Source: Psychrilyobacter sp. (GTDB lineage: Bacteria > Fusobacteriota > Fusobacteriia > Fusobacteriales > Fusobacteriaceae). Taken from it: a stretch of 13,754 nt of DNA. The position numbers and the translations under genes were made by a program. The DNA lies in NCBI GenBank assembly GCA_030621995.1, contig JAUXGP010000016.1:1-13754 (forward strand), given 5' to 3'. Below, in pieces: positions 9,287 through 13,482 of this stretch; position 1 is the first letter of the stretch; each line of letters opens with the position of its first letter. The notes beneath the pieces were generated by a model. The model was given only the letters and a program-made list of their open reading frames with translations, made no database searches and was not told the DNA's origin.

Positions 9287-9315
9287 TTGACATATTATGA
9301 TAGATATGATATTAT
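9287..9315 (+). promoter_or_regulatory. Promoter of rplU-prp-rpmA
   Basis: TTGACA (9287-9292) and TATTAT (9310-9315) are separated by exactly 17 bases, a near-consensus housekeeping promoter with A+T-rich DNA upstream. Transcription would start near 9322, just before the G+C-rich leader. Confidence 0.8.
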
Positions 9316-9321
9316 GATCTA

Positions 9322-9384
9322 GTTACGCGTAGGTGGGGTTATCAGCAACCTGTGCCTGGCGATTAAATTTATGGAGGTGTTACA
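9322..9384 (+). ncRNA. Structured 5' leader of rplU (candidate L21 leader)
   Basis: A conspicuously G+C-rich block in A+T-rich DNA lies between the promoter and rplU. CGC and AGG (9326-9333) can pair with CCT and GCG (9355-9361), and GGTT/AACC (9337-9340/9347-9350) closes a six-base loop. The Shine-Dalgarno sequence GGAGG (9373-9377) follows. Position and compactness fit the cis-acting L21 leader described for Firmicutes and relatives, where excess ribosomal protein is thought to bind its own message. I did not test a covariance model. Confidence 0.55.
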
Positions 9385-9696
9385 ATGTACGCAGTAATCA
9401 AAACTGGAGGAAAACAGTACAAAGTTGCAGAAGGTGAAATATTAAGAGTAGAGAAATTAAATGCTGAAGTTAACGAAACTGTTGAAATGACAGAAGTTTT
9501 ATTAGTATCTAACAACGGAGAAATGAAAGTAGGAACTCCTGTAGTAGAAGGTGCAAAAGTGTTAGTAGAAGTATTATCACAAGGTAGAGCTAAAAAAGTT
9601 ATTAACTTCAAATACAAACCTAAAAAGTCAACTCATAGAAGAAAAGGTCACAGACAATTATTCACTGAAATCAAAATCACTTCTATCCAAGGATAA
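9385..9696 (+). CDS. rplU: 50S ribosomal protein L21
   Basis: A 103-residue protein of normal family length opening [14 protein letters not shown], with the family's basic C-terminal segment [15 protein letters not shown], which contacts 23S rRNA in the large subunit. GGAGG at 9373-9377 stands 7 bases before the ATG. It is the first gene of the L21–Prp–L27 operon, with a promoter and structured leader directly upstream. The stop codon overlaps the prp start by one base (TAATG). Confidence 0.97.
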
Positions 9697-10085
9697 TGAC
9701 GGAAATAACCCTCATTTATCAAGGGACTAGAATTGTAGAATTTTATGGATGGAATCATGCCGAATACGGTGAACATGGTAGTGATATCCTGTGTGCTGCA
9801 ATCAGTATGATTTTACAACAAGGAGCAGCTGGTATTTTGGAATATCTAAATATCCCTGCTACTTATTCAACTAATAATGAAACAGGTTTTTTAAGATTAG
9901 ATCTTAAAACTCCAGATGAAGAAAAGTTGGAAAAATTGGATATGACTATTCATAGTTATAATCACATTGTTTTAAAAAACAAAAGGGAAATTAATGCAAT
10001 ATTAGGAAGTATGGTAGTGATGCTGGACCAACTAAGAGAGCAATACCCCAAATATATGAAGATTTTCGAAGAGGAGGCTAATTAA
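9696..10085 (+). CDS. prp: Ribosomal-processing cysteine protease Prp
   Basis: A 129-residue protein encoded between L21 and L27, the defining location of Prp. This protease removes the N-terminal extension of L27, which is required for a functional 50S subunit. The catalytic pair is visible in [21 protein letters not shown]21 and C33 match the family's His and Cys within GHA...DxVCAAVS, with asparagine replacing the usual glycine before His. The ATG overlaps the rplU stop and the stop overlaps the rpmA ATG, both as TAATG, so production of protease and substrate is tightly coupled. At 129 residues it is slightly longer than many homologues. Confidence 0.93.
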
Positions 10086-10378
10086 TGTTTAGAATTGAAT
10101 TACAATTATTTGCTAAGAAAAAAGGACAAGGTTCTGTAAAGAACGGAAGAGACTCTAATCCTAATTACTTAGGTGTAAAAAAATATGATGGTGAGAAAGT
10201 AGTAGCTGGAAACATCGTTGTTAGACAAAGAGGAAACAAATTCCATGCTGGAACTAACATGGGGCAAGGTAAAGATCATACTTTATTTGCTTTAGTTGAT
10301 GGATATGTTAAATTTGAAAGATTAGGTAAAACTAAGAAGCAAGTTTCTATCTACTCTGAAAGAGCAAGCTTAGTATAA
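10085..10378 (+). CDS. rpmA: 50S ribosomal protein L27 with Prp-cleaved N-terminal extension
   Basis: A 97-residue protein with the L27 core ([38 protein letters not shown]). Mature L27 places its N-terminus next to the peptidyl transferase centre. Here the protein begins [16 protein letters not shown], matching the extension first described in Staphylococcus (LQFF|A); the predicted cut is after F9, leaving AKKKG. The extension explains the prp gene immediately upstream. GAGGAGG lies about 8 bases before the ATG. A strong terminator follows 7 bases after the stop, so the ribosomal transcript ends here rather than reading into obgE. Confidence 0.97.
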
Positions 10379-10385
10379 GCTTTTC

Positions 10386-10418
10386 AAATAAATCCCAGCA
10401 TTTTGCTGGGATTTATTT
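10386..10418 (+). terminator. Rho-independent terminator after rpmA
   Basis: AAATAAATCCCAGCA (10386-10400) pairs perfectly over 15 bases with TGCTGGGATTTATTT (10404-10418) around a TTT loop, with T-rich sequence in and after the 3' arm. Confidence 0.88.
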
Positions 10419-10450
10419 ATTATATGGCATTTAACTCTTCCCTTTTTAGC

Positions 10451-10481
10451 GGTTACTCTTTAAAAAAGAGCAACCTATAGT
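10451..10481. repeat. Left inverted terminal hairpin of the DUF559 cassette
   Basis: GGTTACTCTTT-AAA-AAAGAGCAACC folds into a hairpin (GGTT/AACC and CTCTTT/AAAGAG, one A·C mismatch), followed by TATAGT. Bases 10455-10481 match the reverse complement of 10888-10914 at 24 of 27 positions. It lies 33 bases after the rpmA terminator and has no U-tract, so it does not look like an ordinary terminator. Confidence 0.75.
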
Positions 10482-10515
10482 ATATTATGGAGTGACATAA
10501 TTATAGAGGTGTTTT

Positions 10516-10881
10516 GTGAAAGTTTTAAATAAAAAATCAACTAAAATAAAAAGAATTAATCTTAGAAAAACTTCTACTATAAGCGAGAAAAATTTATGGA
10601 AACATTTAAGAGCAAAAAGGTTTCATAATCTTAAATTTTTTCGACAATATGGAATTGGAGAATATATTGTAGATTTTTATTGTCCACAATTAAAGTTAGT
10701 TATTGAACTTGATGGTAAAATACATGATAGTATTTTACATAAAGAATATGACGATATTAGAGATAAGTTTATGAAGGACATAAATATTTTAGTGGTTAGG
10801 TTTAAAAACAAAGAAGTTATAGATGATATTGAGCTAGTTTTAAAAAAATTAAAAATCATAATTTTAAACAAACAACAGTAA
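10516..10881 (+). CDS. DUF559 endonuclease-like protein (Vsr/PD-(D/E)XK fold)
   Basis: A 121-residue basic protein of the DUF559 family, related to the very-short-patch-repair endonuclease fold. The core SEKNLWKHLRAKRFHNLKFFRQ is followed by YIVDFYCPQLKLVIELDGKIHD. The aspartate of VDFYC and the E and D of IELDG are the expected metal-binding residues of a PD-(D/E)XK nuclease. They are intact, so DNA cleavage activity is plausible. The start is GTG at 10516, with GAGGTG about 4 bases upstream. Length is typical of the family. It is not part of the ribosomal operon, since a terminator separates it from rpmA, and the flanking inverted hairpins suggest it belongs to a mobile cassette. Its biological target and benefit are unknown. 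Confidence 0.85.
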   Translation: MKVLNKKSTKIKRINLRKTSTISEKNLWKHLRAKRFHNLKFFRQYGIGEYIVDFYCPQLKLVIELDGKIHDSILHKEYDDIRDKFMKDINILVVRFKNKEVIDDIELVLKKLKIIILNKQQ

Positions 10882-10887
10882 ATATTA

Positions 10888-10915
10888 ACTATAGTTTACT
10901 CTTTTGTAAAGAGTA
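10888..10915. repeat. Right inverted terminal hairpin of the DUF559 cassette
   Basis: ACTATAGT then TACTCTTT-TGT-AAAGAGTA (8-bp stem, 10897-10904/10908-10915) is the inverted counterpart of the hairpin upstream of the gene. It starts 7 bases after the DUF559 stop. It might also end or protect that transcript, though only loose A/T-rich sequence follows. Confidence 0.7.
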
Positions 10916-10958
10916 TACATTTCAAATTAAATTTTTATTACATTTGATTTGAATAATA

Positions 10959-10964
10959 GTATAA
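10959..10964 (+). promoter_or_regulatory. Candidate -10 box for obgE
   Basis: A perfect TATAAT preceded by AATAG lies 47 bases upstream of the obgE start. No good -35 box is seen at 16-18 bases; TTACAT (10938-10943) is at 15. It would give obgE its own promoter, consistent with the terminator after rpmA. Confidence 0.4.
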
Positions 10965-11011
10965 TTCCGACAACAAGGAATGAGTTAGAACAATTAGGAG
11001 GTAAAAGATTT

Positions 11012-12295
11012 ATGTTTATAGATGAGGCGATAATCACCGTCAAAGCCGGTACTGGTGGAGATGGTGCAGCAACATTCAGAAGAGAAAAATATGTACAATT
11101 TGGTGGTCCTGATGGTGGAGACGGTGGAAATGGTGGAAGTATCATATTCGTAGCCGACAACAACATCAATACCCTGGTAGATTTTAGATATAAAAGAGCA
11201 TTTGTAGCTGAAAACGGTACCAAGGGTGCTAAAAAAAGAATGCATGGTAAAACTGGAGATGACTTAATCATCAGAGTTCCTGTAGGAACTATGGTAAGAG
11301 ACTTCGAAAGTGGTGCTTTACTACTTGACCTGAATGAAAACGGGGAAGAGAGGAAGTTATTTCAAGGTGGAAAAGGTGGAGGTGGAAACATTCACTTCAA
11401 GAGTTCTGTAAGAAGAGCTCCTAAGATGGCTGGTAAAGGTCGTAAAGGTAAGGAACTCAGAGTTAAATTAGAACTAAAATTATTAGCTGATGTAGCCTTA
11501 GTTGGATACCCGAGTGTAGGTAAATCAAGCTTTATCAATAAAGTTTCTGCTGCTAAATCAAAGGTTGCAAACTATCACTTCACTACTTTAGCTCCTAAAT
11601 TAGGTGTAGTAAGAGTAGGAGATAACAGATCATTCCTTATGGCAGACATTCCCGGATTAATCGAAGGAGCACATGAAGGTGTAGGATTAGGAGATAAATT
11701 CCTAAAACATATCGAAAGATGTAAGATGATCTACCATATAGTAGATATATCTGGTATGGAAGGCAGATCTCCTGAAGAAGACTTTGAGAAGATTAACAAT
11801 GAATTGGAAAAATTCAGTAAGAGATTGGCCGGTAAGAAACAAATCGTATTAGCCAACAAGATGGACCTGTTGTACGATATGGAAACTTATGAAAACTTTA
11901 AGATCTATATGGCAGGTAAAGGAATTGAAGTATATCCTATATCTGTAATCCTCAATGATGGATTAAAAGAAGTCGTAAACAGAACTTGGTCGTTATTGGA
12001 GGAGATCCCTCGTGAAGAACTAGAAGAAGAAACAGATGTACTGGATATCTTAAAAGCTATCGAGGATGAAAAACCTGACTGGCATGTAGAGATAGATGAA
12101 GAGGGTACCTTTGTTGTAACCGGTAAGATCGTAGAAAATGTACTTAATACCTATGTCTTCAACGATGATGAAGCTATTGTAAGTTTCGTCCATGTATTGA
12201 AAAACCTAGGATTAGAGAATCAGCTGATCAAAGCCGGGATTGAAGAGTGGGATACAGTAAGAATTGAAAATGTAGAGTTTGACTATATTGTATAA
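11012..12295 (+). CDS. obgE: Obg family GTPase ObgE/CgtA
   Basis: A 427-residue protein, standard length. The glycine-rich Obg fold (1-158) opens MFIDEAIITVKAGTGGDGAATFRREK. The G domain shows GYPSVGKSS (G1, 165-173), FTTL (switch I, 190-193), DIPGLIEGA (G3, 212-220), NKMD (G4, 282-285) and SV (G5, 311-312, where SA is usual). A C-terminal OCT domain (about 355-427) follows. It binds GTP/GDP and ppGpp, associates with the 50S subunit and acts in late ribosome assembly and stress control. The start is at 11012: AGGAGG at 10996-11001 is 10 bases upstream and the family opening is matched. A TTG 21 codons earlier is rejected. It normally follows rplU–rpmA; here the DUF559 cassette intervenes. 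Confidence 0.97.
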   Translation: MFIDEAIITVKAGTGGDGAATFRREKYVQFGGPDGGDGGNGGSIIFVADNNINTLVDFRYKRAFVAENGTKGAKKRMHGKTGDDLIIRVPVGTMVRDFESGALLLDLNENGEERKLFQGGKGGGGNIHFKSSVRRAPKMAGKGRKGKELRVKLELKLLADVALVGYPSVGKSSFINKVSAAKSKVANYHFTTLAPKLGVVRVGDNRSFLMADIPGLIEGAHEGVGLGDKFLKHIERCKMIYHIVDISGMEGRSPEEDFEKINNELEKFSKRLAGKKQIVLANKMDLLYDMETYENFKIYMAGKGIEVYPISVILNDGLKEVVNRTWSLLEEIPREELEEETDVLDILKAIEDEKPDWHVEIDEEGTFVVTGKIVENVLNTYVFNDDEAIVSFVHVLKNLGLENQLIKAGIEEWDTVRIENVEFDYIV

Positions 12296-12297
12296 GA

Positions 12298-12323
12298 AAA
12301 GGGATTGATTCCTCAATCCCTTT
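12298..12323. terminator. Shared terminator of convergent obgE and outer-membrane gene
   Basis: AAAGGGATTGA (12298-12308) pairs perfectly with TCAATCCCTTT (12313-12323) across a TTCC loop. A/T-rich tails lie on both sides, so it can stop transcription from obgE (plus) and from the minus-strand gene ending at 12361. Confidence 0.8.
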
Positions 12324-12360
12324 CACTATCTTATATAAATATGTTTAATTTATTTTTTTC

Positions 12361-13482
12361 TTAGAATTTTGTACCGAATCTAACCCCTACAGATAATTCC
12401 TCTTTAGCATAACTTCCTGCAGCCCATCCTGTAGCTGTATAAGAAATATATTTTACATATGGAGTTATATTGGCTTGACCTAATTTAGCTCTATATTGTA
12501 ATTCTGGTGCAACATACATAGATATGTCATTATTTGCACTTTGTAAAATTGAATATGCTTCTAACCCAAATTCAGTGATGAAGTATGTATTCTCTGCAAC
12601 TTCTCTTTCATAACCTAAATACTGCTCAATTGAGAATGCAAACTTATTATCTTCATCAATATTTCCATCAAACACACCATTAGAGTAGTCATCATATTCT
12701 TTTCCTGTTTTTTTATCTTTTTTAGTTTTACTTGTTCCTGCAAAATCAAAATAGAAATCTCCAGCAAGTGACCAAGTATCACTCAATTTTCTATAGTTAG
12801 TTATGTTTAATTGAAATGCAGTAGTTTCTTTTGCATCATCATAACCTATGATAGGACTGATATCCATTGCAAATCCATAGTATGTAGCTGAGATCTTTGG
12901 GTTAAATTTCCATAATCTCTTTGTTTCAGAATCTCTTCCTTCATCTGCTGTACCATGGTCAGCATGTTTAGATGTATAATTTTCTGACTTATCATAATCA
13001 AATCCAACAGTTGGTACGAATGTCCATTCTTTCCCCATCATATCAAATGTTCCTGCTTGATAGTCCAATGCAAATTCAGTATCCCAACCTGCACTCGTCT
13101 TCTCCCATTTTTTATTGAAGTTATAATCCCTGTCGATGTCATAGATAAATCCAAATTTATCCATGTTTAATTTACCCTTAGCCACTGTCCACTCTATCTT
13201 ATTAGCAGAGTTTGCATAATTACCATTTCCTTCTTTATCCGATCTTCCAGGACCTTGATACATTCTAGCTCTTACTTCACCTGTATAAGAACCGCTGAAT
13301 CCACCTTCTCCCGTCTGTCTTCCTGCTACCAATCCTTCAATTGCACCAACGTCAGTAGTTGTAATAACTTCTACAGCCTTTTCAGTCGATAAAGTTGCAT
13401 CTTCCGGGGCTGGAGTATGTACTGCAAATGTTGTAGCTCCTAATACTAGTATTCCTGCTAATAATAATAATTTTTTGTTCAT
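12361..13482 (-). CDS. Fusobacterial-type outer-membrane beta-barrel protein (porin-like)
   Basis: A 373-residue secreted protein. The signal peptide MNKKLLLLAGILVLGATTFA ends in an AxA-like site, probably cut after A20. A short proline/acidic linker (VHTPAPEDA) comes next, then a long run of alternating aromatic strands with polar loops, e.g. IEWTVAKGKLNMDKFGFIYD and EWTFVPTVGFDYDK. The C-terminus SVGVRFGTKF ends in phenylalanine, the signal for BAM-mediated insertion. This is the layout of FomA-like major outer-membrane proteins of Fusobacteriota, although I cannot call it FomA itself. It probably forms a diffusion channel. AGGAGG at 13491-13496 lies 8 bases before the ATG, and the promoter is at 13573-13601. 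It is monocistronic, between two terminators, and convergent with obgE. Confidence 0.85.
   Translation of the reverse strand: MNKKLLLLAGILVLGATTFAVHTPAPEDATLSTEKAVEVITTTDVGAIEGLVAGRQTGEGGFSGSYTGEVRARMYQGPGRSDKEGNGNYANSANKIEWTVAKGKLNMDKFGFIYDIDRDYNFNKKWEKTSAGWDTEFALDYQAGTFDMMGKEWTFVPTVGFDYDKSENYTSKHADHGTADEGRDSETKRLWKFNPKISATYYGFAMDISPIIGYDDAKETTAFQLNITNYRKLSDTWSLAGDFYFDFAGTSKTKKDKKTGKEYDDYSNGVFDGNIDEDNKFAFSIEQYLGYEREVAENTYFITEFGLEAYSILQSANNDISMYVAPELQYRAKLGQANITPYVKYISYTATGWAAGSYAKEELSVGVRFGTKF

What the first reader, a model, noticed from the sequence alone, without database searches (positions are those of the whole stretch)
10451..10918. DUF559 nuclease gene boxed by inverted hairpin repeats between rpmA and obgE
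Bases 10455-10481 and the reverse complement of 10888-10914 agree at 24 of 27 positions, and each copy itself forms a hairpin (CTCTTT...AAAGAG). They closely enclose a single DUF559 gene that interrupts the usual rpmA–obgE adjacency. The layout suggests a minimal, transposase-free mobile cassette whose nuclease may drive its own spread, or a hairpin-ended unit recognised by that nuclease.
Basis: partly seen in the sequence, partly recalled or inferred. Interest (0 to 1): 0.75.

Follow-up and report, generated by a model that had tools for sequence, protein, structure and literature searches.

The report
Nuclease gene inside dispersed hairpin repeats
A small DNA-cutting enzyme gene sits inside a folded repeat that is scattered through its genome, and similar enzyme genes in many other bacteria sit beside matching repeats, which points to a tiny mobile element that carries no known transposase.

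Summary
The 24-of-27 inverted hairpin pair is real. It is the first and third arm of a larger repeat, 10433-10986: an outer stem (AACTC...GAGTT) enclosing hairpin arms, with the DUF559 gene (10516-10881) where gene-less copies have a short central arm. Gene-less copies, simplest about 100 nt, are scattered in this genome (31 right-end matches, reversed control 2); 8 of 29 pairs of their fold show compensatory changes. Of 61 genomes of the family, 9 hold the repeat; 7 of those also hold a repeat-type DUF559 gene. No Y1/RAYT transposase was found in the five repeat-rich genomes. Cross-phylum DUF559 genes often have inverted palindromic flanks (31 of 77, controls 2 of 131; 13 of 25 further copies), and similar nucleases have similar repeats. 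In E. coli a repeat found beside ycjD (DUF559) is polymorphic, once as a clean insertion with an 8-nt duplication. Best reading: a nuclease-repeat pair that spreads like REPIN-RAYT but with a Vsr/homing-type nuclease. Mobility of the repeats is supported; the nuclease's role is inferred; the window gene shows no recent movement.

The parts
10433..10986 (+). whole element: folded repeat carrying the DUF559 gene in place of the central arm
   Evidence: outer ends match gene-less copies; orthologue in G054
10433..10444 (+). left outer stem arm AACTCTTCCCTT
   Evidence: resembles the left ends of gene-less copies; outer stem with compensatory changes
   Evidence: left outer end plus arm identical at 46 of 47 positions to G054
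10516..10881 (+). DUF559 (PF04480) PD-(D/E)XK nuclease gene, GTG start, 121 aa
   Evidence: dN 0.18, dS 0.80 (NG86) against the G054 orthologue
   Evidence: 26 of 26 aligned positions identical to G054, 2 gap columns set aside
10915..10967 (+). inserted block of a second, smaller repeat type; stands where the G054 copy has CAAA
   Evidence: a similar block in gene-less copies L091, L097, L136
10968..10986 (+). right outer end CGACAACAAGGAATGAGTT
   Evidence: 31 matches of its consensus in the genome (up to 3 mismatches) against 2 for the reversed control

Best explanation
The unit at 10433-10986 is the gene-bearing member of a family of folded palindromic repeats; the other members found in this genome are gene-less derivatives, the simplest about 100 nt. 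The DUF559 protein is a small Vsr/EDxHD-type (PD-(D/E)XK) nuclease that I think recognises the hairpin arms of its own repeat family. It would make staggered breaks at a target (between genes, or in another repeat), and repeat DNA, with or without the gene, would be joined or copied in during repair. It is thus a transposase-free nuclease-repeat pair, working like RAYT-REPIN but with an unrelated enzyme. Shown: the anatomy, dispersed and polymorphic copies, no Y1 transposase found in the repeat-rich held assemblies, a recurrent association of DUF559 genes with cognate repeats, conserved catalytic-type residues, purifying selection, and one clean insertion with an 8-nt duplication for the repeat found beside E. 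coli ycjD. Inferred: hairpin recognition, cleavage, and that the nuclease causes the movement.
Against: 35 of 77 cross-phylum loci show no flank similarity at the threshold in either orientation, and 11 of 25 further copies likewise; 9 of 16 and 5 of 15 genomes have none of the generic hairpin. G045 has a DUF559 gene but no repeat match; G057 and G059 have repeat matches (1 and 7) but only the D-to-N paralogue (G059 also a DUF559-like stretch in a 1566-aa frame); the G060 repeat-type nuclease is broken although repeats abound. The window gene is at the same site in G054, 70% identical, so no recent movement of the gene is seen. Two gene-less copies of this genome show no clear target duplication, and one replaced about 80 nt; two of three E. 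coli copies compared with other alleles were replacements, not clean insertions. The link between ycjD and its neighbouring repeat is adjacency only. Several genus assemblies are incomplete (G000 76%, G056 62%, G060 81%). Transposases other than Y1 were not searched for. No binding or cleavage is shown.
Confidence: 0.6

Rival explanations
1. Homing: the repeats spread by some other means, and the DUF559 gene is a homing-type endonuclease gene that invades existing repeats by cutting the gene-less form and being copied in between the arms by recombination.
For: Nearest fold with a described function is the homing endonuclease I-Bth0305I; the gene lies in the central arm with arms on both sides as homology, in more than one nuclease lineage; many gene-less target-like copies exist.
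Against: Does not explain why nuclease lineages tend to have their own repeat type or what moves the repeats; among the 45 copies compared, the highest identity between copies of one genome is 82% (G070), apart from one identical G097 pair with matching upstream flanks.
Confidence: 0.2
2. The repeats are ordinary MITEs moved in trans by a DDE or other transposase not found here, and DUF559 is passenger cargo.
For: Outer inverted repeats, nesting of copies, an 8-nt target duplication in the E. coli relative. Only Y1 transposases were searched for.
Against: A passenger would not be expected recurrently beside its own cognate repeat in many phyla; conserved residues and dN/dS about 0.23.
Confidence: 0.13
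3. The hairpins are host regulatory or terminator structures around a domesticated Vsr-like repair or defence nuclease, with no mobility of their own.
For: Outer ends and arms nearly identical between G000 and G054 (92 of 93 aligned positions; gene 293 of 360), so probably functional; a Caulobacter DUF559 protein is linked to DNA damage (PMC12907096, summary and passages).
Against: Neither arm is listed by the terminator scan and neither is followed by a T run in the sequence (the scan is weak, as it also misses the likely rpmA terminator near 10393-10420); dispersed gene-less copies and polymorphism.
Confidence: 0.07

Closest known systems
REPIN-RAYT systems (REP doublets with Y1 tyrosine transposases; PMC3116915, abstract and section list seen)
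   Same: enzyme gene beside cognate palindromic repeats; gene-less repeats dispersed between genes; enzyme and repeat pair up
   Different: enzyme is a PD-(D/E)XK nuclease, not an HUH/Y1 transposase; no Y1_Tnp found in the repeat-rich genus genomes; here the gene lies inside the folded repeat
EDxHD homing endonucleases (I-Bth0305I, PDB 3r3p) and Vsr (1cw0)
   Same: fold; conserved acidic and His residues E24, E64, D66, H70; PMC9403480 assigns a DUF559 gene to the EDxHD family (one passage). Which residues make up the EDxHD motif is recalled, not tested.
   Different: no intron or intein; the host site is a dispersed palindromic repeat
MITEs
   Same: short, non-coding, terminal inverted repeats, between genes, nested
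   Different: no parental transposase identified; the gene-bearing copy encodes a nuclease
CGTC-tagged REPs, reported to lack a dedicated transposase (PMC3733652, abstract and passages)
   Same: dispersed palindromes without a known transposase
   Different: the motif I recall for them (ATTCCC..GGGAAT) was not found in the loci held; no link shown

Membership tests
DUF559 / PF04480 | profile match above curated cut-off | tested here: met
   106.5 bits against cut-off 20.6
DUF559 / PF04480 | PD-(D/E)XK Vsr-like fold with acidic/His residues | tested here: met
REPIN-RAYT | Y1/HUH transposase in repeat-bearing genomes | tested here: not met
   none found in the five repeat-rich genus genomes (three of them incomplete); one copy with stops in G057
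REPIN-RAYT | enzyme gene next to repeats that are also dispersed without it | tested here: met
MITE of a DDE transposon | terminal inverted repeats | tested here: met
   outer stem, 10 pairs, 96.4% of cells paired
MITE of a DDE transposon | target-site duplication | tested here: inconclusive
   8 nt at one E. coli site; none clear at two G000 sites or at two other E. coli sites
MITE of a DDE transposon | parental transposase with the same ends | not tested
EDxHD homing endonuclease gene | cleaves the gene-less allele and is copied in | not testable with these tools
   needs an enzyme assay; fold match only
Intrinsic terminators | G+C-rich stem followed by a T run | tested here: not met
   neither arm is listed by the scan of 9300-12400, and no T run follows either arm on either strand in the sequence; the scan also misses the likely rpmA terminator, so it is weak on its own

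The most novel reading that the evidence does not exclude
Stand-alone DUF559 nucleases are the missing partner enzymes of a large, cross-phylum class of non-RAYT palindromic repeats, including the repeat found beside E. coli ycjD, and move them by nuclease-initiated, repair-completed insertion: a class of mobile element built on a restriction-fold nuclease and its hairpins alone.
Probability: 0.4. Interest if true: 0.92.

Novelty: new variant of a known kind. Interest (0 to 1): 0.78.

Why it matters
Some widespread bacterial palindromic repeats are reported to lack a dedicated enzyme (PMC3733652, abstract). If DUF559 nucleases are partners of such repeats, a widespread 'unknown function' family gains a role, and the origin of common repeats becomes directly testable in ordinary laboratory E. 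coli K-12, where the pstB-pstA copy is present. It would also show that dispersed mobile repeats can be kept by a Vsr/homing-type nuclease without a transposase.

Tried and rejected
RAYT/IS200 as mover: rejected for this genus as far as the held assemblies go. Terminators: rejected by sequence reading and scan (the scan misses the likely rpmA terminator). Known RNA family: five matches, all far below gathering score; three lie outside the element, one ends at its first base and one overlaps its left end. CGTC-type motif at the loci held: none found. Defence-system reading: only weak PADLOC matches (DpdF, mREase_II, best E 2.3e-6, for the G054 orthologue). E. coli sapF-fabI as empty site for ycjD: not usable, since the three strains read without ycjD carry efflux genes there. 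zntA-tusA E. coli copy: search run, no other allele read. Phage and plasmid collections: relatives in 2 of 50,697 phage records and 37 of 72,556 plasmid records; flanks of six plasmid-collection records were read by eye and not counted. The search for homologous proteins failed and was not repeated; proteins from fetched loci were aligned instead. The YN00 dN/dS estimate failed; only NG86 is given. Literature: the searches that answered were made; seven more failed. DUF559 occurs in 14 held papers (listing), none titled on dispersed or mobile repeats. Passages were seen in PMC12907096, PMC8836110, PMC9403480 and PMC3733652 (abstract 83), and the abstract of PMC3116915. So absence of a prior description is only weakly tested. 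The score threshold of 30 was chosen after seeing the score list (several thresholds are given). The generic hairpin patterns were written after reading some of the same loci, so searches are not independent of them. Which copies were new was tagged by hand from contig lengths and positions.

Full report
What is there. Searching the 27-mer (up to 3 mismatches) in the window's own genome (G000, 1.87 Mb in 311 contigs, about 76% complete) found it at three other loci; the genome has only two DUF559 genes, the window's and one on C59, so these three carry none. With up to 3 mismatches the right end has 31 matches in the genome (reversed control 2) and the left end 18 (control 0). Pairing ends gave 25 copies of 42-183 nt; the simple ones are about 100 nt: outer stem, first hairpin arm, short central arm, third hairpin arm, outer stem. 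I aligned 11 of these 25 (length 99-110 nt, two others of that length left out for nested inserts). They give 29 pairs, 8 with changes on both sides, 95.9% of cells paired; 0 of 500 shuffles reach the covariation score, slid controls pair 50-59%, and the count of further pair types is not raised (12 against 14.6 in shuffles). In the window the gene occupies the place of the central arm.

The gene. It is DUF559. The predicted structure (pLDDT 91.5) is closest to 3hrl, then the I-Bth0305I homing endonuclease catalytic domain, then Vsr. E24, Y50 and H70 are among the invariant residues of 44 aligned proteins; E64 and D66 are nearly so. PMC9403480 (one passage) places a DUF559 gene in the EDxHD homing family. 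The C59 gene belongs to a lineage whose VDF motif has become ANF or FNF, so it is probably not catalytic. It lies downstream of one conserved gene, with no repeat recognised by eye at L143, L145, L146 and L164; L002 and L157 carry a half repeat upstream, and L162 was not classified.

Close relatives. G054 carries the whole element at the same rpmA-obgE site. Outer ends and arms agree at 92 of 93 aligned positions (4 gap columns set aside), the gene at 293 of 360; proteins are 70% identical, dN 0.184, dS 0.802 by NG86. The sequence left of the element is also well conserved (52 of 55 aligned). G055, G057 and G059 have no such element there but a different palindrome, so the gap is not a clean empty site. 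Two gene-less copies of G000 are absent from G054, G055, G057 and G059 at the matching places; at one the repeat stands in place of about 80 nt, at the other the insertion is nearly simple without a clear duplication. A covariance model found the repeat in 9 of 61 genomes (E 0.001, stricter filters, hits counted on both strands): G000 50, G060 36, G055 33, G056 20, G054 19, G059 7, G046 3, G053 2, G057 1. Repeat-type DUF559 genes are in G000, G054, G055, G056, G060 (broken), G045, G046 and G053 (my sorting of the 18 genomes with any match, leaving out paralogues of the C59 type and matches inside frames of several hundred residues or short fragments); the table 7/1/2/51 gives Fisher 6e-7, not corrected for kinship. 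Y1 transposases: none in 7 of 8 genus genomes, one with stops in G057.

Other phyla. One scan gave 80 loci (of 134 confirmed) with related proteins. For the 77 with usable flanks, upstream and reversed downstream flanks align at score 30 or more in 31, against 2 of 131 other genes in the same loci; counting direct or inverted similarity, 42 of 77 against 6 of 131. As a check, 23 of these genomes were searched for all DUF559 genes (61 matches); 54 stretches were fetched and 44 of them used. Of 30 copies not in the first set, 25 had both flanks, and 13 of 25 reached 30 inverted, 14 of 25 in either orientation. In 45 copies, within-genome pairs (59, after dropping one identical G097 pair) show nuclease identity rising with flank similarity, rho 0.43, permutation p 0.009; between genomes (930 pairs, not independent) 15 of 620 pairs under 45% identity share flanks against 64 of 310 above. 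So nucleases tend to keep their own repeat. Generic hairpins occur in 7 of 16 and 10 of 15 such genomes, two or more copies in 5 and 7, up to 26 and 23 copies, reversed controls 0-1.

E. coli. A plasmid-collection search led to ycjD, between sapF and fabI. A 47-nt palindrome lies about 160 nt downstream of ycjD. It is found in 5375 of 5426 genomes, median 18 places, range 1-32 (E 0.01). I recall, from no call, that E. coli has a repeat called BoxC of this kind. The pstB-pstA copy is covered (80% or more of the query) in 2089 of 5426 genomes. Two alleles without it were read; exact comparison with one shows an 84-nt insert between two copies of the 8-nt AACCGTGT, 92 nt longer in all. A third AACCGTGT lies inside the insert. 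The ypfG-tkt copy (811 of 5426; five other alleles read) and the yihR-yihS copy (2297 of 5426; one other allele read) are replacements instead. That ycjD moves this repeat rests on adjacency only.

Mechanism. Mobility of the repeats is supported by scattered, nested and polymorphic copies. The nuclease as agent is inferred from its place inside the repeat in two lineages, cognate pairing across phyla, conserved residues, purifying selection and lack of a Y1 enzyme. Hairpin recognition and repair-mediated joining are inference; copies lying within other copies at hairpin loops (L098, L108, L113, read by eye) and the 8-nt duplication fit staggered cutting. Homing into pre-existing repeats and an unseen transposase remain open.

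Noticed in passing
window 10915-10967; L091, L097, L106, L110, L136: A second, smaller repeat family (about 45-55 nt, CATCKTAAA..) sits at or in the hairpin arms of the first family; the window copy has such a block, absent in the G054 orthologue.
   Followed up: partly
L166, L167, L169 (G055, G059, G057), rpmA-obgE gap: A different palindrome, TTGAAAATTGAAAGTGG..CAACTTTCAATTTTCAA, occupies the place where G000 and G054 carry the DUF559 element.
   Followed up: no
L003:581-934 (G000 C59) and L143, L145, L146, L162, L164: DUF559 paralogue kept beside one conserved gene, with the catalytic-type Asp changed to Asn (VDF to ANF/FNF): perhaps a domesticated, inactive copy.
   Followed up: partly
L306, L307, L308 (E. 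coli 4069, AREA_R485, N4220121): These three strains lack ycjD and carry efflux genes after sapF instead.
   Followed up: no
L299 (NZ_OL790696.1): An E. coli record of chromosome size (4.8 Mb) is filed as a plasmid in the plasmid collection.
   Followed up: no
L273, L274 (G097 C8): Two DUF559 copies about 14 kb apart, identical over the matched region, with matching upstream but not downstream flanks.
   Followed up: no
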